From: Pseudomonadota bacterium
Lineage (GTDB): Bacteria > Pseudomonadota > Gammaproteobacteria > Burkholderiales > Burkholderiaceae_C
Direction of reading: 5' to 3'
Assembly (NCBI GenBank): GCA_018241185.1
Contig: JAFEEH010000218.1
Span: 1 to 40,969 of the forward strand
DNA length: 40,969 nucleotides
Below are positions 742 to 38,041 of the stretch, in pieces. A model generated the notes under the pieces. It searched no databases. It worked only from the letters and a program-made list of their open reading frames with translations, and was not told the DNA's origin. Numbering within the stretch: the first letter of the stretch is position 1; each line of letters begins with the position of its first letter. Position numbers and translations under genes: made by a program.

Positions 742-797
742 TGCTATTTTTTCGATAGCTGCTCACGCCCACTGGGCGGGCGTTGCAGCCCGATTCG
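742..797 (+). repeat. Dispersed repeat copy A (GCTA-N9-TAGC element)
   Basis: The head GCTA-N9-TAGC (743-759) is followed by a second GC-rich hairpin (ACGCCC...GGGCGT) and a degenerate tail CCCGATTCG. The copy lies between the convergent OmpA-like gene and the response regulator. It is the most divergent copy at the 3' end, and its minus-strand frame is interrupted by a stop. Confidence 0.7.
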
Positions 798-800
798 ATG

Positions 801-838
801 CATGAACCCGCGCCGACCCGGCCGCGGGTTTTTTCATG
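801..838 (+). terminator. Rho-independent terminator, convergent junction
   Basis: AACCCGCG (805-812) pairs with CGCGGGTT (823-830) and is followed by a T6 tract. Flanking CATGAA and TTCATG can extend the stem. It terminates the OmpA-like gene and lies immediately beyond the stop of the minus-strand response regulator. Confidence 0.8.
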
Positions 839-847
839 TGCGGCCGA

Positions 848-1486
848 TCAGCCGCCAGCTTCCACGCCGCGCAACAGGTTGGCCAGCTCGACCGCCGACT
901 TGACCTCCATCTTGTCGAACACGCGGGCGCGGTGCACTTCCACCGTGCGCACGCTGATGGCGAGCTCGTCGGCGATCAGCTTGTTGGGCAGGCCCGCGAC
1001 CACGCGGCGCATCACCTCGCGTTCGCGCTCGGTCAGCTCGGCCACGCGTCGGGTGATCTGCTGGCGCTGGCGCCGTTCGTCGATGGCGCGCTGCGACTGC
1101 ACGAGTGCCTGCTCGATGCGGTCGACCAGCGCGTTGTCGGAGAAGGGTTTCTCGCAGAAATCGAAGGCACCGCGCTTGACGGCATCGACGGCGGTGGGCA
1201 CGTCGGCGTGGCCGGTGAGGAAGATCACCGGCATCTCCGCCAGCTGGCCGCGCTCGGCCAGGCGGTCGAACAGCACCAGACCGCTGGTGCCGGGCATGCG
1301 CACGTCCAGCAGCAGACAGCGCGGCTGCTCGCGGCCGGGGTTCTCCGAGAGCCGCTGCTCGAAGGCCTCGGCGCTGGCGTAGTGCTCGCTCGACAGGCGG
1401 CGCGAACGCAGCAGCCAGGCCAGGGCCTCGCGCACCGAGGCGTCGTCGTCGACGATGAAGATCAGGGCATCGATCAGGGGTTGCAT
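848..1486 (-). CDS. FixJ/DctR-type response regulator
   Basis: This 212-aa two-component regulator has an N-terminal receiver domain with the acidic pair in FIVDDD (about 13-15), phospho-acceptor Asp61 in LLLDVRMPG and the conserved Lys in CEKPF. A C-terminal LuxR-type helix-turn-helix follows (LTEREREVM ... ISVRTVEVHRARVFDKM). The ATG at 1486 gives a normal FixJ/NarL length; a longer upstream reading would overlap the kinase gene and has no family-like sequence. It starts 11 nt after the kinase stop, so the two are surely co-transcribed and cognate. The closest families I recall are DctR/TtrR/FixJ; the signal is not deducible here because no dicarboxylate transporter or other target gene is adjacent. 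Confidence 0.9.
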   Translation of the reverse strand: MQPLIDALIFIVDDDASVREALAWLLRSRRLSSEHYASAEAFEQRLSENPGREQPRCLLLDVRMPGTSGLVLFDRLAERGQLAEMPVIFLTGHADVPTAVDAVKRGAFDFCEKPFSDNALVDRIEQALVQSQRAIDERRQRQQITRRVAELTEREREVMRRVVAGLPNKLIADELAISVRTVEVHRARVFDKMEVKSAVELANLLRGVEAGG

Positions 1487-1497
1487 CCGCTCGTCTT

Positions 1498-3672
1498 TCA
1501 GGAAAGCTGGGCCTGGCCGCCGTCCAGCCGCGCCGCGGGCTCGGCCACCGGCAGCGTGAAGCGGAAAACGGTGCCGTGCGGCCGGTTGGACTCGTACAGC
1601 AGCACGCCGCCGTGCTGCTCGACCACCGTACGGCACAGGCTCAGGCCCAGGCCCATGCCGTCGGGCCGCGTGGTGAAGAAGGGGGTGAACAGGCGCGCGC
1701 CGACCTCGTCGTCAATGCCGCAGCCCAGGTCGGCCACCGAAAAGGCCAGCCAGCGCCGCACGTCGGCGCCGGCCTCGCCGCCGTGCGCGCTCACCGGCCC
1801 CTCGGCGCGGCGCACCTGCAGGGTGAGCACACGTTCCGACAGGTCGGGGCGGTCCATGGCCTGCATGCCGTTGCGCGCCAGGTTCAGCAGCACCTGCTCC
1901 ACCAGGGTGCGGTCGCAGAACACCGGCGGCAGCCGCGGCTCGACGTCGAGCACGAGCTGCACGCCCAGCTTGTGCGCCTGCAGGCGCACCAGCGGCATCA
2001 CGGCCTCGAGCAGCGCAGCCGGCAGGACGCGCTCGCGCGCGCGGTCGCGCCGCCGGACGAAGTCGTGCACGCTGCGGATCACCTGGCCAGCGCGGTCGGC
2101 CTGCTCGGCGATGCGCCGCATGGCCATGGCGATGTCGTCGCGGTCGACGGGCGTCACATCGCCCGGCGCCGCCAGCAGGTTGATCGAACCGCTGGCGTAG
2201 CTGGCGATGGCGGCCAGCGGCTGCGTGAGCTCGTGGCTCATGAGCGAGGCCATCTCGCCCACCGTGGCCAGGCGCGCACTGGCCTGAAGCCGCTCCTGGC
2301 TGGCGCGCGACATCTCCTCCACGCGGCGCTGCTCGCTGATGTCGATGAACGCGCTCATCCAGCCGGTCTGCACGCGCTGCGCGTTGATCAGCGGCGCCTC
2401 GAAGATCAGCACCGGGATGCGCTTGCCGTCCTTGCGCTGGAACACCGACTCGAAGCCCTCGCGCGCGGTGCCGCCGCTGGCCTGCCGCTGGCGCTGGCGC
2501 TGGCGGTACTCGTGCGCGAGTTCGGCCGGCCAGTAGGGCACGTCGCTCGAGGTCCCGAGCAGTTCCTCGGCGCTGAAGCCGACCATCTCGCAGAAGGCGG
2601 GATTGACGTAGGTGATGCGGCCCTGCAGGTCGCGCGCGCGCAGGCCGGTGATGACCGAGTCCTCCATGGCCTTGCGGAAGGCCAGCGCGTCGGACAGGTT
2701 GTCCTCGGCCGCGACGCGGCGGCGCGTGTCGCGCGCGAGCAGCACCAGCACCGACACGAGCGCGATCGACATCGCGGTGACCAGGCCGGTGAGCACGTTG
2801 GGGAACAGGTCGGGCGCGGCCCGCCAGCCGTCCACGCGCAACACCAGTGCGTTGCCCGGCAGGTCGAGCAGCTGCTGCGCGGTGAAGACGCGGTTGCCCA
2901 GGCGCCGGGCGGTGCCCAGGCTCACGAGGCGGGTGCCGTCGGTCTCGGTCAGCGAAACCTCCTGGCCGCGCATCAGTGCCGGCCCAAGCAATTCGTTGAG
3001 CATGGCACGCAGCGAGTAGGTGGCGACCAGGAAGCCGCCCTCCTCCAGCGGAAGACAGCTTTCCATGGCCTCGACACCGCCAGCCATGCCTGCGAGGTGC
3101 ATCAGCGGCACATAGTGGCTGGGCGAGTAGGCGATGCTGCGCAGGCGACGCGCGCCGGTGCAGGCGAGCGCCACGTCGGTCTGCGCATCGGCGCGGGTAC
3201 CGATGTCGAATACCGATGCGCGAAAGGGCGTGTCGACCGCACGCAGCAGGCGCATGTCCGCGGAACGCCATTCGATGCGCAGCCATTCGCGGTGTCGGCG
3301 CAGCAGCTCCGCCGCACCGGCCGTCCGGGCGGCCTCGGTGGGCAGGGCCTGCAGCGCCTGCAGGTCCTGCATGTTGCGCGCCAGTCCGGCGCGCACGTCG
3401 GCCACCGCGTCGGCGGTGTCGCGGTCCAGCCGCGTCTGCACCTGCTCCACCTCGTGCCGCCCGGCCAGCCAGACCACGGTGACCAGCAGCGCCAGCACCA
3501 GCAGCGCGAGCAGCACCCACAGGAACCAGCGGCGCCACAGCGAGCGCAACGCGCGCCAGCTGCGCCTCCAGGCCGGCACGGCGGGCGATGCGGGCACCGG
3601 TGGCGCCAATGGCGCCGCGCCGGTATCGGCGGGCGCGGTGTGCACGGCGTCCGCGGGAAGGGTGGCGCTCAT
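1498..3672 (-). CDS. Membrane PAS sensor histidine kinase (DctS/FixL-like)
   Basis: This is a 724-aa inner-membrane kinase. After a Pro/Ala-rich N-terminus, TM1 (about 50-72) and TM2 (about 293-315) enclose a periplasmic sensor region of about 220 residues. A cytoplasmic PAS domain follows (about 330-450; RITYVNPAFCEMVGF), then HisKA with the phospho-His in LMSHELTQPLAAI, then a HATPase domain with NLARNGMQAM (N-box), DLGCGID (G1) and GMGLGLSLCRTVVEQHGG (G2). The N-box has Gly where Ala is usual. Architecture and H-box resemble DctS/FixL/TtrS. It lies 25 nt downstream of the carbon-nitrogen hydrolase and just upstream of its regulator, so it ends the yhdP operon. Confidence 0.9.
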   Translation of the reverse strand: MSATLPADAVHTAPADTGAAPLAPPVPASPAVPAWRRSWRALRSLWRRWFLWVLLALLVLALLVTVVWLAGRHEVEQVQTRLDRDTADAVADVRAGLARNMQDLQALQALPTEAARTAGAAELLRRHREWLRIEWRSADMRLLRAVDTPFRASVFDIGTRADAQTDVALACTGARRLRSIAYSPSHYVPLMHLAGMAGGVEAMESCLPLEEGGFLVATYSLRAMLNELLGPALMRGQEVSLTETDGTRLVSLGTARRLGNRVFTAQQLLDLPGNALVLRVDGWRAAPDLFPNVLTGLVTAMSIALVSVLVLLARDTRRRVAAEDNLSDALAFRKAMEDSVITGLRARDLQGRITYVNPAFCEMVGFSAEELLGTSSDVPYWPAELAHEYRQRQRQRQASGGTAREGFESVFQRKDGKRIPVLIFEAPLINAQRVQTGWMSAFIDISEQRRVEEMSRASQERLQASARLATVGEMASLMSHELTQPLAAIASYASGSINLLAAPGDVTPVDRDDIAMAMRRIAEQADRAGQVIRSVHDFVRRRDRARERVLPAALLEAVMPLVRLQAHKLGVQLVLDVEPRLPPVFCDRTLVEQVLLNLARNGMQAMDRPDLSERVLTLQVRRAEGPVSAHGGEAGADVRRWLAFSVADLGCGIDDEVGARLFTPFFTTRPDGMGLGLSLCRTVVEQHGGVLLYESNRPHGTVFRFTLPVAEPAARLDGGQAQLS

Positions 3673-3697
3673 CCGGCCTCTGAAGTCGGCGGTGCGT

Positions 3698-4513
3698 TCA
3701 CAACACGCGGTGTGTCAAGGCCGGCAGTTGGGCCCGGCACTCGCGCAGCCGGCCGGCGTCGAGTTCGGCCAGCACCAGGCCCTCGCCGGTGGCGCGCTGC
3801 GCGACGACGCTGCCCCAGGGGTCGGCCACCAGGGTCTGGCCCCAGGTCTGGCGGCCGTTTTCGTGGGTGCCGCCCTGCGCCGGCGCGGCCACCCAGGCCA
3901 GGTTCTCGATGGCCCGGGCGCGCAAAAGCGTTTCCCAGTGCGCCATGCCGGTGGTGCGGGTGAAGGCGCTGGGCACCAGCATCAGGTCGGCGCCCTCGCG
4001 GGCGAGCGCGCGGTAGAGCTCGGGAAAGCGCAGGTCGTAGCAGACCGACAGGCCCACGCGCCAGCGGTGGCCGTCGCCCGATGGCAAGTCGAACACCACC
4101 GGCTGCGCGCCCGGCGCGATGACGCGCGCCTCGTCGTAGCGCTCGCGGCCGTTGTCGAAGCAGAAGAGGTGGATCTTGTCGTAGCGCGCCACACACGCGC
4201 CCTCGGGCGACCAGGCGAAGGAGGTGTTGTAGACGTGGGCGTCGTCGCACGCCTGCAACGGCAGCGTGCCGCCGACGATCCACAGGCCGAGCGCACGTGC
4301 GCGGTCGGCCAGGAAGCGCTGCACCGGGCCGTCGCCGGGCGGCTCGCGCAGCGCGAGCTTGTCGGTGTCCTTGCGGCCCATCATGCAGAAGTACTCGGGC
4401 AGCACAGCGAGTTCGGCGCCCGCGGCGGCGGCCTCGGCCAGCAGCGCGCCGGCGCGCTCGAGGTTGGCGTCTCGCTCGACGCCCGACACCATCTGGATCG
4501 CGGCGATCTTCAT
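3698..4513 (-). CDS. Carbon-nitrogen hydrolase (Nit2/omega-amidase-like)
   Basis: This 271-aa nitrilase-superfamily enzyme shows the catalytic Glu in LAVLPEYF, Lys in YDKIHLF and Cys in GLSVCYDLRFPELYRAL. It starts MKIAAIQMVSG at 4513, and the ATG overlaps the yhdP stop by 4 nt (ATGA), so translation is coupled. The set GRKDTDK ... LPLQ and FDNGRERYDEA resembles Nit1/Nit2, which hydrolyse deaminated glutathione or 2-oxoacid amides; the substrate assignment is inference from similarity. Linkage of this hydrolase with yhdP downstream of glnE is common in Burkholderiales. Confidence 0.88.
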   Translation of the reverse strand: MKIAAIQMVSGVERDANLERAGALLAEAAAAGAELAVLPEYFCMMGRKDTDKLALREPPGDGPVQRFLADRARALGLWIVGGTLPLQACDDAHVYNTSFAWSPEGACVARYDKIHLFCFDNGRERYDEARVIAPGAQPVVFDLPSGDGHRWRVGLSVCYDLRFPELYRALAREGADLMLVPSAFTRTTGMAHWETLLRARAIENLAWVAAPAQGGTHENGRQTWGQTLVADPWGSVVAQRATGEGLVLAELDAGRLRECRAQLPALTHRVL

Positions 4514-7500
4514 GGGCGGTTCTCCTGGGGGCTGGCGCTGCCTTCGCGGGCCCATTCGGGCAGGGCGGGAAGCGCGGGTAAGGACGGCAGCGTGGGCAAT
4601 TTCGGCAGTTCCTGCTGCAGCGCGCTACCGATGCGCCGCGGGACCTTGGTCACACGCGGGTCGGCCCAGGTGCCGTCGATCTGGAACTCCTGGGTCGCCG
4701 CGACGGCGAGCGGCTTGCTGAGCACCATCTGCGCCAGGAAGGTGCCCAGGCCGATGGCGGGGTTGATCGCGGTCGCTACCAACGCCGCGGTGCCGGCATT
4801 GATCTCCGGCACCACGACGACGCGCAGATTCTGCGTCTCGCGCGCGATGTCGGCCGAACCGTCCATCAGCACGGCGGCGTTGACGCCCTTCATCTGCAGG
4901 TTGTTGGTGGTGGCGATGCCGTCGGCGATGCGCGCGTCGCCGCGGATGAAGTCGAAGGCGAAGCCGGCGCTGAAGATGTCGCGGAAGTCCAGCGTCAGCC
5001 GCCGCGGCAGGGCCTGCAGGCTCAGCACGCCCAGCAGCTTGGCGATGCCGGGTTCGGCCTTGAGGAACTGGCCGGAAGCCATGTCCAGATGCATCTGGCC
5101 GCCCAGGCTGGGGTAGTCGATGGAAAAGGGCGATCCGCGCCACTGCACCTCGCCGGCGAGTTGCCCCTTGCCGCGCGCCAGCACGCCCTTCATGCCGAAG
5201 CGCTCGAGCAGCGCGCCGGCGTCGGCGATGTCGAGCTTGAAGTTCATCGCCGTGCGCCGCGGCGCCTTGCCGCCTGCGTTGGCCGCGGCGGCCCAGGAGC
5301 CCTGCGCGCTGAAGGCGCCTTCGGGGGTGGTCAGGGTGAGTTTGTTGAGGCGCCACTCGCGCGTGGCGCCGCCGCGGTTGACGGCATCGATCTCGGCGCG
5401 ACCGAGCTTGCGGCCGAGCAGCTCGAAGTCGTCGACCACCACGTCCAGCGCGGGCAGGTCGCCGGGTTCCTCGTCGAGCAGCGACTCGACCTGCTTCGCT
5501 TCGCTGGGCTCGATCTTCAGCCGCGCCAGCCGCGCATAGAGGCGTCCGGCCTGCTGCACGCGGTATTCGGCATAGCCGCTGAGCTCGCGTGCGTCGATGT
5601 TGGCGCGCCAGAGCGTGCCTTCGCGGGTGCCCCCCATCACCACGTCGTGCAGCGTGCGGCCCGCCACCGCGAACTCCCCGGCCCGGATCGCCACCAGCGT
5701 GGGCACCCACGCCGACTCCTCGGCCTCGCTCGCGGGCGCCACGGCCTGGGTGCTGCCTGCGTTCTCCTCGAAGACCTTGCGCCAGGCCTCCACGTCGACC
5801 CGGGGCAGGGCGATGTTGGCCAGCACGCCGCTCTCGGGCAACGCGCCGGACTCGACCGCCGCCTGCCCGATGCGCACCGCGCCGCGCAGCACCCGGGCGG
5901 CGCCGCCCGTCAGCTCGCGCTCGTACTGGGCCGAAGCGGCGCTGCCCAGCGTCATCTCGAACTGGTCGCGCGTGGCCCGGCCCTCGCGGTCGCGCCGCAG
6001 CACGGTCTGCGCGACGCGCAGCGGCAGGGTGTCGCCGGAGGCCTTGCCCAGCGGCGCCGGAAGATCCAGTGCCAGGCCCTGCAGGTTGCTGTCGAGGCTG
6101 AACTCGGGCGTGTCGTCCCGCATGCCGAAGGTGGCGGTGTAGGTGGTGCCGCCCTGCATCTGGCGCGCCAGGCGGGCCAGCCAGTCGGCCTCGCGCGCGG
6201 CGCGCAGCCCGTCGGCGGTGACGTTGCCGGTGGCACGCAGGCTGAAGTCCTGGCTGGCCGACGAGTAGCGGCCCTTGCCTTCGACGCGCACGTCGCCGCC
6301 GCCGAAGCGCGCCTGGACGCCCACCAGCGAGAAGCCACTCTCGGTGAAGTTGAGCGTGCCGCGCGCCTGCGTGAGCGGTGGCGCCTCGGGCGCCAGGCGC
6401 AGTTCGTTGTCGGCCAGCACCACCCCGGCCTGCACCTTGGCCTTGTCCATGGCGTCGAGCGGCAGCTCGAGCTTGAGGCGGTAGTCGCCGTTGCCGGTCG
6501 CGCGCACGCCGGCCACGAAATCGCGCGCGCCGCCCAGCAGCGGCGCACCGACGCGCAACACGTCGCCCAGGGGCCCGCGGGCCTGCGCGTCGACCTGCAG
6601 CACGCCGTGGTCGAGGTTGGGGATGCGCGCCTCGCCCTTCACCATCTCGACCGCGGTCGCGCCGGCGATCCGCGCGCGGGCGTTGTTCACCTGCATGCTC
6701 GCGCGCTCGAAGACCAGTTCGCCCGACAGGGCGGTGAGCGGCGGCCAGGCGGAGGGCTTGCCGCCGGCCTCGTGGGGCACGTAGGCGTAGTCCACGTCGT
6801 GCACCTTGGCCGCAATGCGGAACTCGCCCTGCCTGGGGTCGAGGAAGGGCATATCCCACAGGTCGCCGCGCAGGCGGAAGTCGACGCCGCTGGCCTGGCC
6901 CTTGGTCACGGCATCGCGCACGTAGTCGCGCACGTCCTTGGGAATGTCCAGCGGCAGATAGCGCCAGACGCGTGTGCCATCGGCGCGCGTGAGCTGGCCC
7001 TTGAGGTCCAGGATGCCGGGAAAGCGCGACTTGCTGCCCGACTTCTCTGGATCGCTGGTGCGCCAGGCCAGGTCGGCCACGCCCTGCGCATCGGCATTGG
7101 CGAAGCGCACGTCGGGCATGGCGAGTTCGATGCGCTCGCCGTCGCGCTTCCAGCGCAGCCGGCCGCTGAATTGCGCCAGCGGCAGCACCGGGTCTTCGAA
7201 CACGCCGGGCAGGTCCAGCGCGCCGTCGGCCATCGCCAGCGACGCGGTGCCGCCGGCCTGCGTCATCTCGAACTCGGCGTCGAGGCCGCGCACGCCGGGC
7301 ACGCCGACAGGCGGGCGGGCCTGCGCGATGCGGGCGGCGGGGGTGGAGATATCCACGCTGGAGGCCAGGCTCAGGCCCGTCACGCGGCCTCGGGCCTGGT
7401 AGGTGTGGGGCGTGTCGAGCGGCCCCTGCCAGGTCACGTCGATGCCCTCGACCAGGCCGCGCGGCGCGCGGGCTGCGATGACCCGGTGGGCCTCGTCGCC

Positions 7501-8640: not shown

Positions 8641-8653
8641 TGAGGATCGCGCT

Positions 8654-13573: not shown

Positions 13574-13637
13574 TGCTATCGAAAAGATAGCTGCTCGCGC
13601 CCGCGCCACGGGCGCTGGAGGCCGATTTGGCTTGAAA
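13574..13637 (+). repeat. Dispersed repeat copy B
   Basis: This is a near-ideal copy: GCTATC-gaaaa-GATAGC head, GCGCCCG...CGGGCGC second stem, and tail GGCCGATTTGGCTTGAAA. It lies between the ferritin-like gene and the ECF41 gene, just upstream of the sigma-factor promoter. The minus-strand reading is open (FKPNRPPAPV...). Confidence 0.85.
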
Positions 13638-17785: not shown

Positions 17786-19027
17786 ATGACCCTGTCCACC
17801 ACCGCCCCCCACTTCGCGCTGCCCCAGGACGCACCGCGCGCCGCCCGCACCGTGCTGGGCCTGCTGCAGCGCCTGGCGCACGGCTCGCTTTCGGTGCAAC
17901 TGCCCGACGGCCAGGTGCAGCACTTCGGCGCCGCGCCCGGCGCCCGGCCCACCGCGTCGATGACGCTGCGCAACTGGAACGTGTGCGCGGCCGCACTGAA
18001 GTCCGGCGACATCGGTTTCGCCGAGAGCTACATCGCCGGCGACTGGAGCACGCCCGACCTGCCGGCGCTGCTGGAGCTGTTCATCGCCAACCGGCGCGCC
18101 GTCGAGGACGTGGTGTACGGCAACTGGCTGGGTCGCCTGGCCTACCGCGTGCGCCACCTCCTGCAGCGCAACAGCAAGGCCGGCAGCGCGCGCAACATCC
18201 AGGCGCACTACGACCTGGGCAACGCCTTCTACCGCCTGTGGCTGGACGAGACGATGAACTACTCGTCGGCCCTCTTCGGCGACGACCGCGACCAGCCGAT
18301 GGCGCAGGCTCAGCGCGCGAAAGTATGGCGAGCGCTCCACCTGGCGGGTGTGCGCCCCGGCGACCGGGTGCTGGAGATCGGCTGCGGCTGGGGCGCCCTG
18401 GCAGAAATGGCGACCACGGAATTCGGCGCCAGCGTGACCGGCGTGACGCTCTCGCACGAGCAGCTCGCCTTCGCCCGCGGCCGGCTCGCGGGGCTGGGCA
18501 TCGGCCCGGAGCGCGCCGACCTGCGCCTGCAGGACTACCGGGACATCGCCCTGCCGGCGGGCGATGCCGGCTACGACGCCGTCTGCTCCATCGAGATGGT
18601 CGAGGCCGTCGGCCGCGAGTACTGGCCGACCTACTTCGGCGCTGTGGCCCGCCTGCTCAAGCCGGGCGGTCGTGCGTGCATCCAGAGCATCGTGATCGAC
18701 GACGCGCTGTGGCCGCGCTACATCCGCTCGACCGACTTCATCCAGCAGTACATCTTCCCCGGCGGCTGCCTGCCCTGCCCGTCGCAGCTCAAGGCCCAGG
18801 CCGAAGCCGCGGGGCTGACGCTGGTGGACGAATTCGCCTTCGGCGCCGACTACGCCGAGACGCTGCGCCGCTGGCGCGAACGCTTCCTGGCCGAGCGCCA
18901 GGCCGTGCTGCAACTGGGTTTCGACGAAAGGTTCATGCGCATATGGGAGTTCTACCTCGCGTACTGCGAAGCGGCCTTCACGCAGGCCAACATCGACGTG
19001 GTGCAGTACACGCTACAAAAACGATAG
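17786..19027 (+). CDS. cfa: Cyclopropane-fatty-acyl-phospholipid synthase family methyltransferase
   Basis: This 413-aa SAM-dependent methyltransferase of the CFA/mycolic-acid-synthase family shows HYDLGNAFYRLWLDETMNYSSALF, the SAM-binding motif VLEIGCGWGALAEMA, GVTLSHEQLAFA and QYIFPGGCLP. It would transfer a methylene or methyl group to unsaturated acyl chains in membrane phospholipid. Within this operon, and with an FAD oxidoreductase alongside, it could be a specialised paralog making methylated or furan-type acyl chains rather than the housekeeping Cfa; the sequence alone does not decide. Its last codons and TAG stop (19025-19027) lie inside repeat copy C. Confidence 0.88.
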   Translation: MTLSTTAPHFALPQDAPRAARTVLGLLQRLAHGSLSVQLPDGQVQHFGAAPGARPTASMTLRNWNVCAAALKSGDIGFAESYIAGDWSTPDLPALLELFIANRRAVEDVVYGNWLGRLAYRVRHLLQRNSKAGSARNIQAHYDLGNAFYRLWLDETMNYSSALFGDDRDQPMAQAQRAKVWRALHLAGVRPGDRVLEIGCGWGALAEMATTEFGASVTGVTLSHEQLAFARGRLAGLGIGPERADLRLQDYRDIALPAGDAGYDAVCSIEMVEAVGREYWPTYFGAVARLLKPGGRACIQSIVIDDALWPRYIRSTDFIQQYIFPGGCLPCPSQLKAQAEAAGLTLVDEFAFGADYAETLRRWRERFLAERQAVLQLGFDERFMRIWEFYLAYCEAAFTQANIDVVQYTLQKR

Positions 19028-19073
19028 CTATCTGCGCAGGACTGGCGGGCGCTGCAGCCCTTTTCGGCTTGAA
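19012..19073 (+). repeat. Dispersed repeat copy C, bridging two genes
   Basis: The head GCTA-N9-TAGC (19012-19028) contains the cfa stop. A GGACTGGCGGGCGCTGCAG arm and the tail CTTTTCGGCTTGAA follow, ending 4 nt before the ATG at 19078 of the chalcone-isomerase-like gene. Read in that gene's frame it encodes IAICAGLAGAAALFGL, a signal-peptide-like hydrophobic stretch. Confidence 0.8.
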
Positions 19074-19077
19074 TTCG

Positions 19078-26642: not shown

Positions 26643-26705
26643 GCTATCAAAACAGTAGCTGGCCGCGCAGTAACGGCGGCCGTTTCGGGGCCATTCTTCT
26701 TGAAA
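26643..26705 (+). repeat. Dispersed repeat copy E (degenerate)
   Basis: GCTATCAAAACAGTAGC keeps the exact GCTA-N9-TAGC head. The second arm (GCGCAGTAACGGCGGCCGT) and tail (GGCCATTCTTCTTGAAA) have drifted. It sits in the 477-base gap between the DUF3717 gene and terC, just upstream of the terC promoter. The rest of this gap is promoter and riboswitch. Confidence 0.7.
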
Positions 26706-26751: not shown

Positions 26752-26756
26752 CGCGC

Positions 26757-28756: not shown

Positions 28757-28769
28757 AACGCGGCCACGG

Positions 28770-31700: not shown

Positions 31701-34049
31701 CTGCATCACCTGTCCCTGATGCAGCGCGAGCCGCGTGCGCAGCGATTCATGGCGCTGCACGAGCATCTCCAGCGCCTGCACCAGGCGCTGCGCGTCCAGC
31801 GGCCCCCGCAGGCGCAGCGACAAGGCCACGTTGTAGGCCACGCTGTGCGGATCGAACTGCTGCACCAGCCACATGCGGCGTTGCGAAAGCGACGCCGGCA
31901 ACGGCGCGGCGCGCGAGGCCGCAGGCGGCTCGATCGCGTCAGGCGTTGCCTCGGGCAGTCGCTGGCGCACCTGCTGCGCGAGGCGGGCCACGGTCGGCTC
32001 GTCGAGCAGCACGTCCCAGGGCAGTTGCACACCCCAGCGGTGCTGGATGCGCGAGGCGACCTGCGTGAGCAGGAGGGAAGTGCCACCGAGTTCGATGAAA
32101 TGGGTGTGGGCATCGAAGCCTTCGCGGCCCAGCACGTCGGCCCAGATGTGCCAGAGCGCCTGTTCGGTGGCGTCCGCAGGCGCGCCTGCCCCTGCGGCCT
32201 CGTCGTGCAGCACGGCCAGCGGCGCCAGCGCGCCCGCGAGCCAGGCCTGCCGGCAGCGACTGCGCTGAATCTTGCCGCTGGAGGTGCGCGGCAGCGCGCC
32301 GCCGCGCATCAGCGCCACGGCATGCACGGGCACCTCGTGCGCCTGCGCCACGGCGCGGCGCACGGCGCGCAGGATCGCGAACTGCTCCTCGCCGGAGGCC
32401 GGCCGCCCGCGCGCTTCCACCAGCACCACCGCCGCGTCACCGTTCGGCGTGTCGACCGCGAAGGCGCAGGCGTAGCCGCCGGTGCGCAACTGCGAGTGGG
32501 CCTGCTCGGCCGTCCATTCGATGTCCTGCGGGTACAGATTCTGGCCATGGACGATCAGCAGATCCTTCAGGCGGCCGGTGACGAACAGTTCGCCACCTTC
32601 CACGAAACCCAGGTCGCCCGTGCGCAGGAAGGGGCCCTCGCCATCGGCCCGCCGGGCCTGGAAGGTGGCCGCGCTCTCTTCGGGGCGCCTCCAGTAGCCC
32701 GCGCCCACGGCCTCCGAACGCACCCAGATCTCACCCACCCGGCCGGCGGGACATGGCACGCTGGTGACGGGATCGACGATGCTCAACCCCACGCCGTTCA
32801 TGGCCCGGCCGCAGCCCACGACCGAGCGCACGTCCGTGGACGACGCCGACGCCGGGGCTAAAACGACTTCGTGCCGCTGCAGCGCATGCGCGTCGAGCCG
32901 CAGCGAACGCGCCGGCACATCGACCGCGCAGGCGGACACGCCGAGCACCGATTCGGCGAGGCCATAGGCCGGAGAGAAGGCGCCTGGCCGAAGGCCCGCC
33001 GCGCCAAAAGCCTGCAGCAGGCGTCCGGCGGTGCTCGCACGGATCGGCTCCGCGCCGCAGGTGAGCGAGACGAGGCTGTCAAGGCGCCCCGACCATCCCG
33101 TGTCGGCCTGCTGGCGCAGGCAGGCGGCATAGGCCGATTCCGGCGCGCCGGTGTGGGTGATGGCAAACGCATCGACCGCGTCCAGCCAGCGCAAGGGCCG
33201 GCGCAGGAAGGTCAGCGGCGACATCAACCAGGCCGCCACGCCGCAGGCGAGCGGCAACAGGATGCCCGACACCAGCCCGTAGTCGTGGAAGTGAGGCAGC
33301 CAGCTCAGTGCACGGCTGCCGGGCGTGACGCCGAAGGCCGCGCCCAGCATGCCGAGGTTGGCCAGTACCTGCGCATGCGTGAGGCACACGCCGCGCGGCT
33401 CGGCGGTCGAGCCCGAGGTGTACTGCAGGTAGGCCAGCGCGCCCGCATCCACCGCGGGCAGTGCCGCGACGGCGGTGGTGGCTGCCAGGGCCTGCGGCGC
33501 GTGCCACGGCATTCCGGTGGCACCGAAGGCCTCCTGCATGGCGGGCAAGGCCGAAGCGTCGCACAGGCCCAAGGCAGCCGCCGCATCGTGGGCGATTCCC
33601 TGCAACCGCGGCAGCCCACGCTGCAGGCGTGCCGCGTCGAGCGCGGGCACCGGCACGGCCACCCTGCCTGCCAGGACGCAGGCCCAGAAGGCGCGCACGA
33701 AATCCAGGCCCGGGCGCAACGCCAGCAGCACGCGATCGCCGGGCCGCCCGTACGCCGCCAGGCGTTCCGCCAGCGCGCAAGACTGCTGACGCAGCGCCTG
33801 GAAACTGAGCCGGTCGGCGATGGACAGATCGTCGGCCACCCAGCTGACGGCCAGCGCGGAGCCGCCCTCGGCGCATCGCGCGTGGAACAGCTCGACCAAG
33901 GTAGCGACAGGACGGACGGCGGTCGAATCCGGCCGCGGGACAACGGCGGAAGGTGGCACGGTCAAGACGAACGCATGAGGGCCGGTGGCCCCCTCCCTGT
34001 GCGTTCTCGAGGAAGGATGAATGGGTCTGCGCGACGGAGCAGAGGCCAA
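28770..34049 (-). CDS. FAAL-PCP-C-A-PCP non-ribosomal lipopeptide synthetase
   Basis: The protein is 1759 aa. Fatty-acyl-AMP ligase (about 45-620): YTSGSTAEPRG at about 206, WLPHFHDYGL. PCP1: ELGGTSLL (Ser at about 654). Condensation (about 715-1130): SLSQRRMWLVQQFDP, HHAITDNWSM at about 848 (Asn replaces Gly of HHxxxDG). Adenylation (about 1170-1665): LIYTSGSTGRPKG, MYGPTETTVW, NGKIDRNAL. PCP2: DLGGHSLL (Ser at about 1715). By-eye alignment gives specificity code D-I-L-Q-V-G-M-V-W-K, close to the glycine code. The expected intermediate is N-acyl-glycyl-S-PCP. There is no thioesterase, reductase or terminal C domain, and no phosphopantetheinyl transferase or exporter nearby. The start is uncertain: TTG 34049 lacks a ribosome site; GTG 33959 is possible. 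Confidence 0.9.
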   Translation of the reverse strand: MASAPSRRPIHPSSRTHREGATGPHAFVLTVPPSAVVPRPDSTAVRPVATLVELFHARCAEGGSALAVSWVADDLSIADRLSFQALRQQSCALAERLAAYGRPGDRVLLALRPGLDFVRAFWACVLAGRVAVPVPALDAARLQRGLPRLQGIAHDAAAALGLCDASALPAMQEAFGATGMPWHAPQALAATTAVAALPAVDAGALAYLQYTSGSTAEPRGVCLTHAQVLANLGMLGAAFGVTPGSRALSWLPHFHDYGLVSGILLPLACGVAAWLMSPLTFLRRPLRWLDAVDAFAITHTGAPESAYAACLRQQADTGWSGRLDSLVSLTCGAEPIRASTAGRLLQAFGAAGLRPGAFSPAYGLAESVLGVSACAVDVPARSLRLDAHALQRHEVVLAPASASSTDVRSVVGCGRAMNGVGLSIVDPVTSVPCPAGRVGEIWVRSEAVGAGYWRRPEESAATFQARRADGEGPFLRTGDLGFVEGGELFVTGRLKDLLIVHGQNLYPQDIEWTAEQAHSQLRTGGYACAFAVDTPNGDAAVVLVEARGRPASGEEQFAILRAVRRAVAQAHEVPVHAVALMRGGALPRTSSGKIQRSRCRQAWLAGALAPLAVLHDEAAGAGAPADATEQALWHIWADVLGREGFDAHTHFIELGGTSLLLTQVASRIQHRWGVQLPWDVLLDEPTVARLAQQVRQRLPEATPDAIEPPAASRAAPLPASLSQRRMWLVQQFDPHSVAYNVALSLRLRGPLDAQRLVQALEMLVQRHESLRTRLALHQGQVMQVVEPSAELPFECIDLRDTPTETREDAARALLSERVAAPFDLQSAPLHRVTLVRLADDDHALLWVQHHAITDNWSMTVLVRELLLCEAAWVAGQAPQLPPLAVHYADHALRQHAPAEVERRGAQRGYWLARLAGLQTLQLPTDFPRPARPSFRGSKVSAPLSPALRSALRSAAVRAQATPFVVLLAAFQLQLSRQAGVTDIAVGVPVANRHTLAAESLVGTLVNTLVLRTDLSGDPAVGELLQRVRRTALDAFDHQDMPFDELVEALGQDRAQPPDGLVRVLFNVVNAPLGPLPAVPFRYEEFELDRVAAQFDLSLHVDTEFGHRLHIEYATDLFAPATAQRLLDNYLVLLQQLLQADDGQPTSALDSVAPAERALVASWQGPAVPQPAEAVVHAHLPIGARARRDEVALVDAHGLQLRFGELEARANALAHLLRQRGIARGHRVGLCGPRDVHLVVAMLGVLKAGAAYVPLDPAFPGERLAHMVEDARPTALVTAGDGGGIESWASGVPVIDITASGVLDAKPVSAPPADPALDAGPDDAAYLIYTSGSTGRPKGVAVPHRAVVNFLASMAHTPGLQAGDRLLAVTTLSFDIAVLELLLPLAVGAQVIIASREQVQDPAQLGLLIERHEITTLQATPSAWRALLDIGWTGGPGFRALVGGEPLPAVLAERLLASCGALWNMYGPTETTVWSTCWQVHDPRGGIAIGRPIANTQVHVLDPQGRPCPIGVPGEAFIGGAGVALGYHGRDALTAERFVPDRFGGSPGARLYRTGDRCRWRHDGQLEHLGRLDHQVKVRGFRIELGEIESVLNEHPAVAQCVVVTRSEREDDVRLVAYTVLREEPQVDAVALREHLRLRLPEYMVPQHVVRLDALPLLPNGKIDRNALPAPAVLPDARAGRAAAAPATAEEAAIAGIWREVLGVEDVHPGDNFFDLGGHSLLAMRAVLAIEERLGWRVAPRRLVFETMRQIARPDSAQPA

Positions 34050-34172
34050 GCCGCGCGAATGCCCCGATGTTAGTTCCTAAGTTTTAATGCTGGTCAGCGC
34101 ATGCTCAGCAACACACGTGAGATATGACACGGACGTGCCACCTGGAGCGAAGGCGAGCGCCCACTACGAAAC

Positions 34173-35762
34173 TCAGAGTGGCTTCTCGTTCATCTGCTCG
34201 CGCGCTTTCACGTCCACTTCGCGCGCCCGGGTGTCGATGATCGACGCCTCGTAGTGGTCGATTCGCAGCGGCCCGCGGCCATCGGCATTGGCACGGACCA
34301 GTTCCTGCGCCGCCTTGAAGCGATCACGCGCCGCCACGTAGTCGAGGATGGCGACGTTGGCTTCGGCGTCGGCCCGGATCGCGCGCAAGGTGTCACCCTG
34401 CTCGTTGTAGAGCGCCGACAGCATCCGCCACGCGCCGTTGTCGCGCGGGTGGGTCGCCACCCAGTCGCGCAGGGGCGCCGCCATCGGGCCGGGGTTGTGG
34501 GTGGCGATGGCGGCCTGGGCCGCGAGCATCATCTCGGCCCGGTCCTTGGCCTTGACGTTGAGCAGCGCCGCCGCCGCCGCGCCGTTGCGGGCCGCCAGCT
34601 CGATCTCGGCCGAGAGCAGCCGCGCCAGCCGCGACGCGGCCGCATCCCCGCGGGTGCGCACCACCAACCGCTCGGCCATGACGCGGGCCGTGCGCACGTC
34701 GCGCAGTTCCGATGCGCCCAGGGCCGCGGCGTACAGCGTGCCGGCCTGCTGGGCCGGCGAAGTCTTTGCGAATTCAGTGCTGTCGGCGGCCTCGACCCAT
34801 TGGCGCAGCACGTCGACCCCCGGGCGGGTCAGCACGCGGGCGCGGGCGCTGATCATCGCGTGGTCCATCTCCAGCGGCAGCGGGGCAACGGCCTCGGCGC
34901 GGAACTGGAAGCGTGCCTGCATCTCGGTGATGCGCTCGCTGGTCAGCGGATGGCTGCGCAGGTAGGGGTAGGCGCCGTTGTCGTTCAGTCGCGAGGCGAA
35001 CTGCAGCTTCTCGAACATGGCGGCGGCGCCGCGCGGCGAGAAGCCGGCCTGCGTCATGACGCCGTAGCCGATGCGGTCGGCCTCGCGCTCCATGTCGCGC
35101 GAGAAGTCGAGCTGCTTCTGCTGCGCGAAGGCCGAGCCGCCGGTCATCATGGCGGCGCCCAGGTCGCCGCCGCTGCGGCTCTTCGAAGCCGCGACCGCGC
35201 CGAGGATCATGGCCGCGATGAGCCACGGCGCCTGCCGGCTCTGCTGGGTCAGCATGCGCGAGATGTGGCGCTGGGTGACGTGCGACAGCTCGTGGCCGAG
35301 CACCGCCGCCAGCTCGTCGCGGCTGCCGACGACGGCGATCAGCCCCATGTTCAGGCCCAGGTAGCCCCCTGGGAGTGCGAAGGCATTGATCGTGCGGTCA
35401 TGGCCGAGCAGCACGGTCCAGGCGTAGCGCTCGTCGAGCTCGGGCGTGAGTTCGCCGCGGGTGCGCGCCGCCGCCATCAGGCGCTGCCAGATGTCCTGGA
35501 CGTAGTCGACCATCACCGGGTCGTCGACGTAGTCCGGGTCCCGGTACAGCTCGCGGGCGATGCGGTCGCCGAGCTGGCGCTCGGCGGTGGCGGTCATCTC
35601 GGCGCCGTCGCTCATGCCCGGCAGCACCTGGGCATGCGCCGCGGACACGGTCAGCAATTGCGATGCTACTAAAGTGATAGCTGTCAGCGCCCGCCAGACG
35701 GGCGTTGCAGGCCGATTTGGCTTGGAAACTTGAGGGAGGGAGGAGGGCGGGCGGTGGGTCAA
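34173..35762 (-). CDS. M48-family periplasmic metalloprotease (BepA/YfgC-like)
   Basis: This 529-aa exported zinc protease has HELSH at about residue 157-161, third ligand Glu in [12 protein letters not shown] (about 226), and a long C-terminal TPR-like helical half, as in BepA, which helps outer-membrane protein assembly and degrades misfolded OMPs. I place the start at TTG 35762: AAGGA is 7 nt upstream and the frame is open. The leader is then [16 protein letters not shown]...[21 protein letters not shown], a signal peptide with an AHA-Q cleavage site. The basic and hydrophobic parts are encoded by repeat copy F. It is 123 nt upstream of the NRPS on the same strand. Confidence 0.88.
35664..35728 (+). 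repeat. Dispersed repeat copy F, inside the M48 signal peptide
   Basis: GCTA-CTAAAGTGA-TAGC head, GCGCCCGCCAGACGGGCG second hairpin and tail GGCCGATTTGGCTTGGAAA. On the minus strand it is read as [11 protein letters not shown] ... [10 protein letters not shown] in the M48 gene. One extra G in the tail distinguishes it from intergenic copies. Confidence 0.85.
35734..35758 (+). other. G-quadruplex-type motif at the M48 start
   Basis: Five GGG tracts (35734, 35738, 35745, 35749, 35756) with loops of 1-4 bases lie on the plus strand, which is the template strand for the M48 gene and encodes its residues THRPPSSLP. It sits between the start codon and repeat F. Confidence 0.6.
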
Positions 35763-35823
35763 GCAGCGGTCCTTGTCGAACGTCCGGGCCCGTATGATGC
35801 GCTCCCGCCCGCTTCGTTCACCC

Positions 35824-36312
35824 ATGCCGACGTCTCCGCTCACCCACTTCGATGCCGAGGGCCAAGCCCACATGGTCGACGTGGCCGCCAAGCCCGCCAC
35901 CCACCGCGTGGCCGTCGCCACCGGCGCCATCGAGATGCGCGCCGAGACGCTGGCGCTGATCGAGTCGGGCAGCGCGAAGAAGGGCGACGTGCTGGGCGTG
36001 GCGCGCATTGCCGGCATCCAGGCCGCCAAGAAGACCAGCGACCTCATCCCGCTGTGTCATCCGCTGGCCCTGACCCGCGTGGCCGTGGCCTTCGAGACCG
36101 CGGATTCACCGGTGCCCCAGGTGCGCTGCACCGCCACTGTCGAGACCGTCGGGCCCACCGGCGTCGAGATGGAAGCGCTGACCGCGGTGCAGGTGGCGCT
36201 GCTGACCGTCTACGACATGTGCAAGGCGGCCGATCGCGGCATGACGATCACGGGCGTGCACGTGGTCGAGAAGCACGGGGGCAAGTCGGGCAGCTGGGTG
36301 GCCGGCGCCTGA
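35824..36312 (+). CDS. moaC: Cyclic pyranopterin monophosphate synthase
   Basis: The 162-aa molybdenum-cofactor enzyme converts the MoaA product 3',8-cH2GTP to cPMP. Hallmarks are [29 protein letters not shown] with the catalytic His region, and [23 protein letters not shown] with the DM-K catalytic segment. ATG 35824 matches MoaC starts; TATGAT at 35793 may be its -10, with TTGTCG at a short 14-nt spacing. It is divergent from the M48 gene and convergent with the ligase gene. No other mo- genes are in the window. Confidence 0.95.
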
Positions 36313-36328
36313 GCGGCAACGGCCTTCT

Positions 36329-38041
36329 TCAATCCGCCGGCAGGCTGCCCAGCCAGCGCAGGTAGTCCTCCGGGTACGCGGCGCGAAAGCGCGTCAGCTG
36401 GGCCTCCACCTCTTCGTCGGCTCCAAGGAACGAGGCCGCCTGGATGCGCTTGACCACCACGCGCGGCTCCGGCGAGAAATGCAGCATCTCGCCGGTCAGG
36501 TCGTACATGGCCGCCGCATTGCCGCGCGTGACTGGCGTGAGCGTGAGATCGGCGAACTTCACGGCATCGCCGAAGAACCACGAGCGGCCACGCAAGCGGT
36601 CGAGCGTGTGCTCGCGCCAGGCCGGCAGGCGCTCGGCGCGCGGCAGGTAGATCTGGCTCACACGGGTGTAGTCCCAGGCGACCCCGGCCAGAAATGCTAT
36701 CGAAATCGTAGCAGCCAGCGCAGCCACGACGGGCGCAAACGGCCAATTCGGCTTAGAAATGGCGACCGGACGGCCGGGCCAGAGGAAGCCCAGGCAGAGG
36801 CCGAACACCAGCTGGAACGGTGCGTACCAGAGCGGGTATTCGAGCAGGCTGTGCAGCACGATCACGCCCAGCAAACCCCACACCATGATCCGCGCCGGAT
36901 CGCGTTCGGCCCAGGGCCGCGCCCGCAGCACCATCCAGACAAAGCCGCCGCAGATCGCCACGGCCGCCGGGATGCCCAGCGTCACCGCCAGATGCAGTGG
37001 CAGGTTGTGCGCGTTGTCGAGGATCTCGACGAAGCGCTCGCCGGCATACAGGTGGCTGTAGTGGGCATGGCTCAACTCGCCCCAGCCCCAGCCGCGCCAG
37101 GGGTGTTCGGCGATCAGCTCGAGGACGTTCTGCCAGAGCACGAGGCGGCTGTGGCCCGGCGGGGCGCCCTCGCGCAGGCGCGAGACCATGCCTTCGACGT
37201 TGCCGCTGGGGAGGCGGGGGAGGAGCCAGGCGGCGCCGGCATACAGCGGTAGGGCGGCCAGCACGAGGGCCGGGTGCGCCAGGCGCGCGGTGACGTGGGC
37301 GGCTGACCGGCGTTGCTGCCGGGCCAGCCAAGTCGCGACGGCGATGACGCACGCCAGTTCGAGCAGGCCCGTCCGCGACGTCGACGCCGCCAACCCCACG
37401 ACCAGCCACGCTGTGGCGATCCCCCACCCTGTTCGACCGCCAGCCGACGCCCGCGCCTGCAGCCAGAGCGCCGCCACCAGCCCCATGCAGCACAGGGACG
37501 CGAACTGGTTGCGCTGCCGCAGGTTCCCGTAGGCCATGCCAAGGGGCTCCATGGGAACAGCGGCCCAAGGTGTCAGCCAGGCCGCGTGCCCGAAATACTG
37601 GACCAGCCCGATGGCCACGCTGACGCACGCGGCCAGTGCCATTCCGTGGCCGAGGGCCAGAGAAGGATCGTCTGCATAGGCGCCTTCCGGACCCATGCGT
37701 CGGCCCGCCAGGAAACCGCACCCCATCACGAACAGTGCTCCTGCAAGGCCGACGCCGGAGATCGCCGCCAGGGCGACGCCCATCAAAAACGCGGCGGTTG
37801 GCCCGCGCACGCCGCTCGTACCAGGGCCGGACCGGCATCGGCCTATTGCCAGCACCGTCGCCAGCAGCACGGCACATCCGCCTGTGAAAAGGGCTTGCCA
37901 TGCATTTCCCAACGGTCCGCCGGCCAACGGAAACAAGAAGGGAACGGCCACAAGCGCGGCGACCGCGCGACATCGGCCTGCATGCGCCGCTCGGGCCGGA
38001 ACGGCCGCGCGGCTCAGCGCGCCCCCGCGACCGGCCGACAA
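36329..38041 (-). CDS. PglL-like O-oligosaccharyltransferase / O-antigen ligase
   Basis: The 570-aa polytopic inner-membrane protein of the Wzy/WaaL/PglL superfamily has about 11-12 TM helices, NLRQRNQFASLCCMGL, and the large periplasmic loop with GWGWGELSHAHYSHL and EILDNAHNLPLHLAVTLGIP. A soluble C-terminal Wzy_C_2-type tail (about 450-570) follows. PglL/TfpO enzymes transfer lipid-linked glycan to pilin Ser/Thr; the divergent minor-pilin operon supports pilin glycosylation but is only context. The TTG at 38041 is the longest start; a GTG near the first TM is possible. The TM segment at about 428-449 (SKPNWPFAPVV ... ISIAFLAG) is translated from repeat copy G. Confidence 0.85.
   Translation of the reverse strand: MSAGRGGALSRAAVPARAAHAGRCRAVAALVAVPFLFPLAGGPLGNAWQALFTGGCAVLLATVLAIGRCRSGPGTSGVRGPTAAFLMGVALAAISGVGLAGALFVMGCGFLAGRRMGPEGAYADDPSLALGHGMALAACVSVAIGLVQYFGHAAWLTPWAAVPMEPLGMAYGNLRQRNQFASLCCMGLVAALWLQARASAGGRTGWGIATAWLVVGLAASTSRTGLLELACVIAVATWLARQQRRSAAHVTARLAHPALVLAALPLYAGAAWLLPRLPSGNVEGMVSRLREGAPPGHSRLVLWQNVLELIAEHPWRGWGWGELSHAHYSHLYAGERFVEILDNAHNLPLHLAVTLGIPAAVAICGGFVWMVLRARPWAERDPARIMVWGLLGVIVLHSLLEYPLWYAPFQLVFGLCLGFLWPGRPVAISKPNWPFAPVVAALAATISIAFLAGVAWDYTRVSQIYLPRAERLPAWREHTLDRLRGRSWFFGDAVKFADLTLTPVTRGNAAAMYDLTGEMLHFSPEPRVVVKRIQAASFLGADEEVEAQLTRFRAAYPEDYLRWLGSLPAD
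36695..36759 (+). repeat. Dispersed repeat copy G, inside the ligase coding region
   Basis: GCTA-TCGAAATCG-TAGC head, GCGCAGCCACGACGGGCGC second arm and tail GGCCAATTCGGCTTAGAAA. Read on the minus strand in frame with the ligase it encodes ISKPNWPFAPVVAALAATISIA, in the same phase as copy F and with the same one-base tail insertion. Confidence 0.85.

What the first reader, a model, noticed from the sequence alone, without database searches (positions are those of the whole stretch)
742..36759. Seven copies of a structured ~63-bp dispersed repeat, all in one orientation
Copies at 742, 13574, 19012, 22265, 26643, 35664 and 36695 share an invariant GCTA-N9-TAGC head (the spacer is exactly 9 nt in all seven), a second GC-rich hairpin (GCGCCCG...CGGGCGC type) and a tail near GGCCgATTTGGCTTGAAA. 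All seven point the same way although the genes around them do not, suggesting insertion or retention linked to replication direction. The two hairpins plus conserved single-stranded tail look like a REP/MITE-type element or a structured RNA. I believe similar repeats are common in Comamonadaceae but know no formal description.
Basis: partly seen in the sequence, partly recalled or inferred. Interest (0 to 1): 0.8.

Follow-up and report, generated by a model that had tools for sequence, protein, structure and literature searches.

The report
Scattered 63-bp DNA signal, Comamonadaceae
Hundreds of copies of a 63-letter DNA sign are scattered through these bacterial genomes, and inside working genes the sign was built up letter by letter instead of being inserted, so it looks less like a jumping element and more like a recognition mark, perhaps one used when the bacteria take up DNA of their own kind.

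Summary
The seven copies are real (0.05 expected). They belong to a family with 412 strict matches in this 5.3-Mb genome, reversed-pattern control 17, found in many Comamonadaceae. The single orientation is local: genome-wide 217/195; in a complete relative 51-54 of 90 follow the leading strand, p 0.07-0.25. The head does not covary. In purK, murG and an efflux-channel gene the motif arose without insertion: same length in all congeners aligned, no element-sized gap against solved homologues. Of eight coding sites compared with element-free congeners, none shows an element-sized gain. Core positions are constrained between own genome and three congeners (9% vs 23% divergence) but not towards G150 (27% vs 24%), at equal flank divergence. 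So this looks like a DNA-level signal kept by selection or drive through a lineage-specific factor. My best guess is a DNA-uptake (self-recognition) signal: selective natural transformation is published for Verminephrobacter and Acidovorax temperans (PMC4212676), and A. temperans carries the motif. Uptake is untested. Two intergenic sites do show length changes, so some copies may move.

The parts
743..805 (+). copy 1 (63-nt core; head 743-759), between convergent genes (OmpA-family, 164-730; LuxR-type response regulator, 848-1486)
   Evidence: (73 bits); present in G158, absent in G155, G156, G150; left gene is only 48% identical there, so spacers are not comparable
13575..13637 (+). copy 2, between two tandem minus-strand genes
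   Evidence: (83 bits); spacer 166 nt in own, G156, G158 vs 65, 64, 58 nt in G155, G150, G152
19012..19074 (+). copy 3; the TAG of its head is the stop codon of the gene 17786-19027 (CMAS-type methyltransferase)
   Evidence: (70 bits); same length in the four congeners aligned, decayed in G150 to 14 bits
22266..22328 (+). copy 4, one base after a stop codon, between convergent genes
   Evidence: (87 bits); kept in G155, G156, G158, partly deleted in G150
26643..26705 (+). copy 5, between divergent genes (1 of 42 resolvable copies outside genes)
   Evidence: (60 bits); kept in G155, G156, G158 and also in G150 (57 bits)
35665..35727 (+). copy 6, antisense in the called N-terminal (signal-peptide) region of an M48 peptidase gene
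   Evidence: (78 bits); same length but decayed in G150 (1 bit); 110-143 nt against 119 in six element-free or near-free congeners
36696..36758 (+). copy 7, antisense inside a Wzy/PglL-like O-antigen ligase gene (36329-37726)
   Evidence: (66 bits); decayed in G150 (19 bits) with 3 nt less
38234..40703 (+). minor-pilin operon (GspH-domain gene, PilV, unnamed third gene, PilX-domain gene; the names FimT and PilW would be mine): only a CANDIDATE for the DNA receptor in the uptake reading
   Evidence: at this locus in own, G155, G158, G150; not found in the stretch examined in G156, G160, G162, G153, G157, G159; short weak matches in G152; G151, G154, G161 not covered

Best explanation
The repeat is a DNA-level recognition signal of about 63 bp: a dyad GCTAY-N2-WWW-N2-RTAGC, then GCGC, 11 nt, GCGC, then GGCC-N-ATTT and an A-rich end. 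It is read by a lineage-specific factor acting in trans. Sites that resemble it by chance are pulled towards it by point substitutions, in non-coding DNA and, where the protein allows, in genes. Existing sites are held by weak selection or molecular drive and decay once the factor is lost or changed. The process that fits best is a DNA-uptake (self-recognition) signal: cells that prefer to import DNA carrying the mark, and recombine it in, would spread the mark over the genome. Shown: family, distribution, origin without insertion at three coding sites, constraint and its absence towards G150. Inferred: a trans-acting factor. Hypothesis: that the factor is the natural-transformation machinery.
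For: No insertion: purK (14 of 14 genomes same length; 41-55 bits in own, G155, G156, G158; 10 in G150; -25 to -60 in nine congeners with 0-6 strict matches), murG (13 of 13 same length; 42-51 in own, G150, G155, G156; -5 to 12 in nine), NodT-type efflux channel (13 of 13 same length; own 68, G156 70, G155 30, G150 9, nine others -37 to -55). G158 could not be aligned at the last two. Against solved homologues the motif region has no gap in PurK (4izo, 10bm), none or one residue in MurG (1f0k, 3s2u), one residue in the efflux channel (1yc9). Constraint: core columns 44/476 changed, low-information columns 89/391, p=5e-8; towards G150 30/111 vs 22/90, p=0.75; flanks 6.7% and 6.6%. G150 has 43 strict matches (control 16), its relatives 278-412. 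Mean linkage between columns of own copies falls to near zero beyond 4 nt. A- and T-tracts interchange as blocks. 15 of 59 copies are in called genes and score lower, mean 55 vs 69 bits, p=0.004. Literature: uptake sequences were suggested to evolve by point mutations in existing sequence (PMC1939737, passages), are more conserved than average and lie in permissive parts of the core genome (PMC2397512, sections 8 and 11). A. temperans was transformed only by DNA of its own species and V. eiseniae DNA uptake appeared selective (PMC4212676, passages); A. temperans DSM 7270 gives 7 of the 80 loci listed.
Against: No uptake was measured. The signals named in PMC4212676 have 9-11 bp; this matrix has 60.7 bits over 74 columns. 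No enrichment in DNA conserved in G150: 12 of 15 flanks, 75.5% expected (small). One copy per 7-9 kb is sparse for an uptake signal (comparison from memory). Copies of one genome are more alike in pairs than column shuffles give (maximum 0.92 vs 0.77-0.83, sd 0.085 vs 0.054), which may reflect unequal quality of sites or some common descent. Two intergenic sites differ by about 83-108 nt between genomes with and without the copy. Decay in G150 is not complete: murG 42 bits, copy 26643 57 bits. The direction of change within the genus is inferred; loss in nine congeners is an alternative for purK and the efflux gene, though the solved homologues speak against any insertion. The candidate pilin operon is not at this locus in G156, which has 358 strict matches.
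Confidence: 0.42

Rival explanations
1. A selected chromosomal binding site that has nothing to do with uptake: a site for a nucleoid or chromosome-organising protein, or another DNA-binding factor, kept about once per 7-9 kb and lost when that factor is lost.
For: The same origin without insertion, constraint and lineage-specific decay. The head is a dyad with a W-tract and degenerate Y/R at symmetric places and no covariation, as in an operator for a dimer. Copies avoid divergent promoter regions (1 of 42).
Against: No protein identified; seven of the 15 genomes of the genus have no strict match, so the function is dispensable; a conserved enzyme differs in its amino acids at the motif (PurK).
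Confidence: 0.27
2. A REP-like non-autonomous element spread by the Y1 transposase (RAYT), now mostly old and decaying.
For: 26 of 27 genomes with at least 40 strict matches have a Y1_Tnp hit, against 86 of the other 123 (my counts). The 3' end of the Y1 gene, read on the other strand, carries part of the element in many of 21 high-copy genomes, and a 56-bit match in own genome. RTAG before a GC-rich stem recalls the GTAG tag of REPs. Two intergenic sites differ by 83-108 nt. Pair identities exceed column shuffles.
Against: 14 of 15 genomes of the genus (own included) have Y1, among them six without any strict match, and G150 where most copies decay. G141 (240 matches) is not among the Y1-positive rows; G020, G040 and G068 (25, 39, 35 matches) have none either. 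No pair of copies above about 93% identity was seen. Coding copies are not insertions.
Confidence: 0.22
3. A structured RNA or bidirectional terminator acting at 3' ends of transcripts.
For: 12 of 44 copies outside genes start 9-18 nt after a stop codon and 6 more supply the stop codon; 15 of 42 lie between convergent genes. GCGC/GCGC ends are nearly invariant.
Against: No Rfam match; no covariation in the head, and C-G at 5/13 never occurs in 85 copies while C-A (25) and T-G (16) do; second-stem covariation is matched by shifted pairs; copies sit inside murE, murG, dapF and purK.
Confidence: 0.05

Closest known systems
DNA uptake sequences DUS (Neisseriaceae) and USS (Pasteurellaceae)
   Same: Hundreds of copies on both strands, many outside genes, origin in existing sequence by point mutation (as proposed in PMC1939737), conservation at orthologous places (PMC2397512), variable presence among relatives.
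   Different: About 63 bp in several blocks and 60.7 bits instead of 9-11 bp; sparser; another family; no uptake shown.
REP elements with TnpAREP/RAYT (REPtrons)
   Same: Hundreds of copies, mainly outside genes near stop codons; RTAG shortly before a GC-rich inverted repeat; a Y1 gene in most hosts, often with an element-like 3' end.
   Different: Y1 present without copies and, in one genome of 150, many copies without a detected Y1; no copy pairs above about 93% seen; coding copies not inserted. Paired inverted copies (BIMEs) were not searched for systematically.
BRE, Betaproteobacterial repeat element (PMC3110155, section 14 and passages read)
   Same: Reported in some of the same genera (Polaromonas, Rhodoferax, Acidovorax), some copies within coding sequence, not co-oriented with the replication fork.
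   Different: About 90 bp, tandem and VNTR-like, at most 29 copies per genome, also in Bordetella. Its sequence is not in the text read, so identity was not tested.

Membership tests
[quoted passage not shown]
   RTAG (first base A 78%, G 18%) stands six bases before a GCGC..GCGC stem whose inner pairs are mismatched in about half of the copies
REP/RAYT element | cognate Y1 gene flanked by the repeats | tested here: inconclusive
   3' end: GGGACAYATC-type sequence in most of 21 loci, going on to ATAGC in 9, a full element clearly in own genome and L142; 5' side: an element in 1 of 20 loci (L134)
REP/RAYT element | repeat population only with the Y1 gene | tested here: not met
   G141: 240 strict matches, not among 112 Y1-positive genomes of 150; HMM hit at E<=0.001 was the criterion
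REP/RAYT element | copies made by insertion of copied DNA | tested here: inconclusive
   not met at eight coding sites; intergenic sites show length change
MITE | terminal inverted repeats, target duplication, clean empty sites | tested here: inconclusive
   no terminal inverted repeat seen by eye in the consensus; no clean empty site at the seven window copies; target duplications not tested
structured RNA family | compensatory changes in stems | tested here: not met
   no Rfam match in the window
DNA uptake sequence | over-represented on both strands, hundreds of copies | tested here: met
   217/195 strict matches, reversed-pattern control 8/9
DNA uptake sequence | arises in existing sequence by point substitution | tested here: met
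   met at coding sites: three of eight without any length change in all genomes aligned, none with an element-sized gain; not shown for intergenic sites
DNA uptake sequence | motif positions conserved at orthologous sites | tested here: met
   core vs low-information columns, three congeners; not so towards G150
DNA uptake sequence | over-represented in the core genome | tested here: inconclusive
   12 of 15 vs 75.5% expected (G150), 2 of 15 vs 12.5% (G160)
DNA uptake sequence | promotes DNA uptake by competent cells of the species | not testable with these tools
   needs an uptake assay; selective transformation is published for two genera of the family (PMC4212676), no signal named in the passages read
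DNA uptake sequence | short core of about 9-11 bp | tested here: not met
   60.7 bits over 74 columns
BRE | sequence identity with BRE | not testable with these tools
   BRE sequence not in the main text read

The most novel reading that the evidence does not exclude
Comamonadaceae have a DNA-uptake or self-recognition signal of a new kind: a multi-block site of about 60 bp, several times longer than the known 9-11 bp uptake signals, that rewrites coding and non-coding DNA in place by point substitution, with a minor-pilin receptor that may be encoded beside the copies in this very window.
Probability: 0.35. Interest if true: 0.93.

Novelty: new variant of a known kind. Interest (0 to 1): 0.82.

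Why it matters
Sequence-selective DNA uptake is described as well established in Neisseriaceae and Pasteurellaceae (PMC4212676). For Acidovorax and Verminephrobacter selectivity was reported, but the passages I read name no signal. This motif is a concrete candidate, so the question becomes directly testable. Whatever the factor is, the case shows a long motif that conserved enzyme genes (purK, murG) carry without any insertion and that has decayed in one species of a genus while its relatives keep it. That is a warning against calling every dispersed bacterial repeat a mobile element.

Tried and rejected
Rfam scan of the window: nothing at gathering scores. Replication-linked orientation: origin and terminus of G003 placed from GC skew of 20 samples of 20 kb; 8 of 98 places, double hits of the palindromic head, were dropped; 51 to 54 of 90 co-oriented over five choices of boundary, p 0.25 to 0.07; a best-split search gave p=0.076. 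Local runs of one orientation exist. RNA or hairpin selection. The loci were fetched by a pattern that fixes much of the head and both GCGC blocks, so only the free positions (6-12, 7-11, 27-29 with 35-37) are informative there. The linkage figures for that set were distorted by near-invariant columns; I use those of own copies. RAYT as the driver. Comparing G155 with G071 was useless: 100% identical over 200 kb. Plasmid and phage searches with one copy gave no match; by my estimate they would miss copies under about 85-90% identity. A search for another 'dialect' in 200 kb of G160 found nothing comparable, but the same test did not bring up the motif in G003, which has it, so it is insensitive. 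Core-genome enrichment: no signal. The first genome-contig scan had a wrong spacing and found nothing; the corrected one used the extra try allowed. 'Palindrom' in the Rhodoferax genome paper PMC2755013 refers to CRISPR (passages). Gene calls are from my own script, so starts are uncertain. Of the 15 in-gene copies among 59, those in murE, murG, the NodT-type gene, the LysE-type gene and copy 35665 were compared with element-free congeners; copy 36696 and one copy in an FtsX-type gene with three congeners only, and for the second FtsX copy nothing aligned. At the aligned FtsX copy G156 and G158 are 87-90 nt longer than own and G155, but the longer forms lack the motif. purK, a gene with a WCGPC (thioredoxin-like) motif and the murC end, which overlaps a gene end, complete the eight sites.
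Full report
OBSERVATION. The head GCTA-N9-TAGC occurs seven times in the window, all on the plus strand, against 0.05 expected in shuffles, and the seven stretches form one ungapped 70-nt family. The whole genome (5.34 Mb, 269 contigs) has 217 forward and 195 reverse matches to GCTAN9TAGCN5GCG; the pattern read backwards gives 8 and 9. A weight matrix refined on 21 stretches of this genome (413 kb; contigs chosen because they held matches) finds 59 copies over 14 bits, 58 of them over 30; the reversed sequence gives none. Scaling by 59 copies to 38 strict seeds suggests very roughly 600 copies per genome. The matrix holds 60.7 bits over 74 columns.

DISTRIBUTION. Among 150 genomes of the GTDB family, 27 have at least 40 strict matches (my count from the table), up to 322 outside this genome; 79 have at least one and many have none. 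The contig length 587559 shared by G071:C32 and a Xenophilus aerolatus E41 record suggests that the genus is Xenophilus. Strict matches in the 15 genomes of the genus: 412 (own), 278, 284, 358, 373, then 43 in G150 (control 16), 6 and 2 in two others (controls 21 and 19), 0 in seven. G071 and G155, two of these, are 100% identical over 200 kb.

ORIENTATION. Genome-wide the strands are balanced. In single-contig G003, with origin near 3.4 Mb and terminus near 1.1 Mb by GC skew, 51 of 90 copies follow the leading strand, 52 to 54 with other boundaries (p 0.25 to 0.07). In 413 kb of the window's genome 44 are plus and 15 minus, so local runs exist. Seven of seven in the window is not a general rule.

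POSITION. Of 59 copies, 15 lie wholly inside called genes, where 82.5% would be expected at random. Of the other 44, two lie at stretch edges; of 42 resolvable ones 15 are between convergent genes, 26 between tandem genes (11 in the sense of the genes, 15 against) and 1 between divergent genes. Twelve of the 44 start 9-18 nt after a stop codon, and in six the TAG of the head is the stop codon.

NO RNA SIGNATURE, LITTLE LINKAGE. In 85 copies of this genome the symmetric positions of the head do not covary; at 5/13 the combinations are TA 42, CA 25, TG 16, CG 0. In 123 copies from the named loci the free head positions again show nothing (6-12 z=0.5, 7-11 z=-2.5), and the second stem shows z=5.1 and 4.1 at 27-37 and 28-36; but the shifted pairs 27-36 and 28-37 give 4.5 and 5.2, so this is a block or composition effect and no proof of pairing. 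Mean linkage between columns of own copies is strong for neighbours and near zero beyond 4 nt. Against full independence: pairs of own copies reach 0.92 identity while column shuffles reach 0.77-0.83, and their spread is larger. The tracts at 8-10 and 52-54 switch between AAA and TTT as blocks.

ORIGIN WITHOUT INSERTION IN GENES. In purK the motif is present in own, G155, G156 and G158 (41-55 bits) and weak in G150 (10 bits), while nine congeners have -25 to -60 bits; all 14 genomes have the same length here and the protein is alignable throughout. In murG own, G150, G155 and G156 score 42-51 and nine others -5 to 12; 13 of 13 have the same length. In a NodT-type efflux gene own and G156 score 68 and 70, G155 30, G150 9, nine others -37 to -55; 13 of 13 have the same length. 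G158 could not be aligned at the last two. Solved homologues agree: no gap at the motif in PurK, none or one residue in MurG, one residue in the efflux channel. So whenever the motif arose, it was not by insertion. Five other coding sites compared with element-free congeners (murE, the murC end, a thioredoxin-like gene, a LysE-type gene, window copy 35665) differ by 0 to 30 nt, less than the element. MurE differs by four residues and DapF by eleven from solved homologues at or beside the motif. That the nine congeners show the older state is an inference; in murG, where they already score up to 12 bits, the step looks small.

INTERGENIC SITES TELL ANOTHER STORY. At copy 13575 the spacer is 166 nt in own, G156 and G158, and 58-65 nt in G155, G150 and G152. 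At a convergent site in contig C62 the genomes without the copy are 83 and 97 nt shorter. These look like insertion or deletion of a stretch larger than the element, without a clean empty site. I cannot exclude that some copies move.

CONSTRAINT AND ITS LOSS. At orthologous window copies, own against G155, G156 and G158 differs at 44 of 476 core, 62 of 391 middle and 89 of 391 low-information columns (core vs low p=5e-8). Own against G150 differs at 30 of 111, 22 of 92 and 22 of 90. Flank divergence is the same, 6.7% and 6.6% (copies with more than five gaps were dropped, which leaves about four copies for G150). Two hundred kb of G155 hold 15 copies, the roughly matching 200 kb of G150 hold 2, and several of its old sites keep their length but have lost most of the motif. 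Exceptions: G150 keeps copy 26643 (57 bits) and murG (42 bits). Something that keeps the motif in the other lineages seems to be missing or changed in G150.

THE Y1 TRANSPOSASE. The genome has one Y1_Tnp gene. In 21 high-copy loci the sequence after its stop codon, read on the other strand, starts GGGACAYATC-like in most; in nine it goes on to ATAGC, and a full element is clear in own genome (56 bits) and L142. One of 20 loci has an element on the 5' side. This is the best evidence for a REP-like link. Of 27 genomes with at least 40 matches 26 have Y1, of the other 123 86 have it. Against it: 14 of 15 genomes of the genus have the gene, six of them without any strict match, and G141 with 240 matches is not among the Y1-positive rows. 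In genomes with few or no copies the end of the gene has at most parts of this sequence, so it may be one more site pulled towards the signal.

EXPLANATION. The data ask for a DNA-level signal recognised in trans, kept by selection or drive, dispensable, and tolerable inside genes. Uptake signals have these properties: they were suggested to evolve by point mutations in existing sequence (PMC1939737, passages read), and are strongly conserved and lie in permissive parts of the core genome (PMC2397512, two sections read). In this family natural transformation is published, in V. eiseniae by type IV pili: A. temperans was transformed only by DNA of its own species, and V. eiseniae lost at most about tenfold to excess foreign DNA (PMC4212676, passages read). 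A. temperans DSM 7270 carries the motif; that this is the type strain tested there is from memory. The step from signal to uptake is my inference. A binding site for a chromosome protein is the closest rival.

A CANDIDATE RECEPTOR IN THE WINDOW. The right end of the window holds a PglL-like gene and a minor-pilin operon. At this locus it is present in G155, G158 and G150, not found in the 7-12 kb examined beside moaC in G156, G160, G162, G153, G157 and G159, and only weakly matched in G152. Only this locus was examined, not whole genomes, three genomes were not covered, and G156 (358 matches) lacks it here, so this is a lead and no more.

LITERATURE. I found no description of this repeat in eight searches of open-access papers. 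The REP papers PMC2817692, PMC3733652 and PMC6006769 were searched by genus and family words only; they hold none of the Comamonadaceae names tried.

Noticed in passing
window 36329-40703: Wzy/PglL-like O-antigen ligase gene next to a minor-pilin operon (GspH-domain, PilV, PilX-domain genes). At this locus in G155, G158 and G150, not found there in G156 and five congeners without or with hardly any copies.
   Followed up: partly
L039 about 6031-6096: A different dispersed repeat of about 60 bp with copies up to 97-98% identical in this genome and in G150 (rows), which looks much more like a recently mobile element than the repeat studied here.
   Followed up: no
L039 about 7324-7385: A further dispersed repeat with many copies (about 84-94% identity) in congeners such as G160, G153, G152 and G161 that lack the 63-bp motif or nearly so (rows).
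   Followed up: no
L031 and L132-L151, flanks of the Y1_Tnp gene: Y1 genes in the family are often bordered by GGGGTCAGATTCCAATTA-type and GGGGACA-type motifs, also in genomes without the 63-bp repeat.
   Followed up: partly
own genome, copies in L033, L035, L039, L042, L045, L051: Several copies have a head of the type GCTCCTGAWT..GATAGC in place of GCTAY..., a non-palindromic variant with the right half intact.
   Followed up: no
G155 and G071: Two genomes counted as different species are 100% identical over 200 kb. G071 has the contig length of a Xenophilus aerolatus E41 record, and a second 'Xenophilus sp. E41' record appears in the same list.
   Followed up: partly
L043:18165-20000 (FtsX-type permease gene): Two motif copies in opposite orientation within one gene, 50 and 63 bits.
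   Followed up: partly
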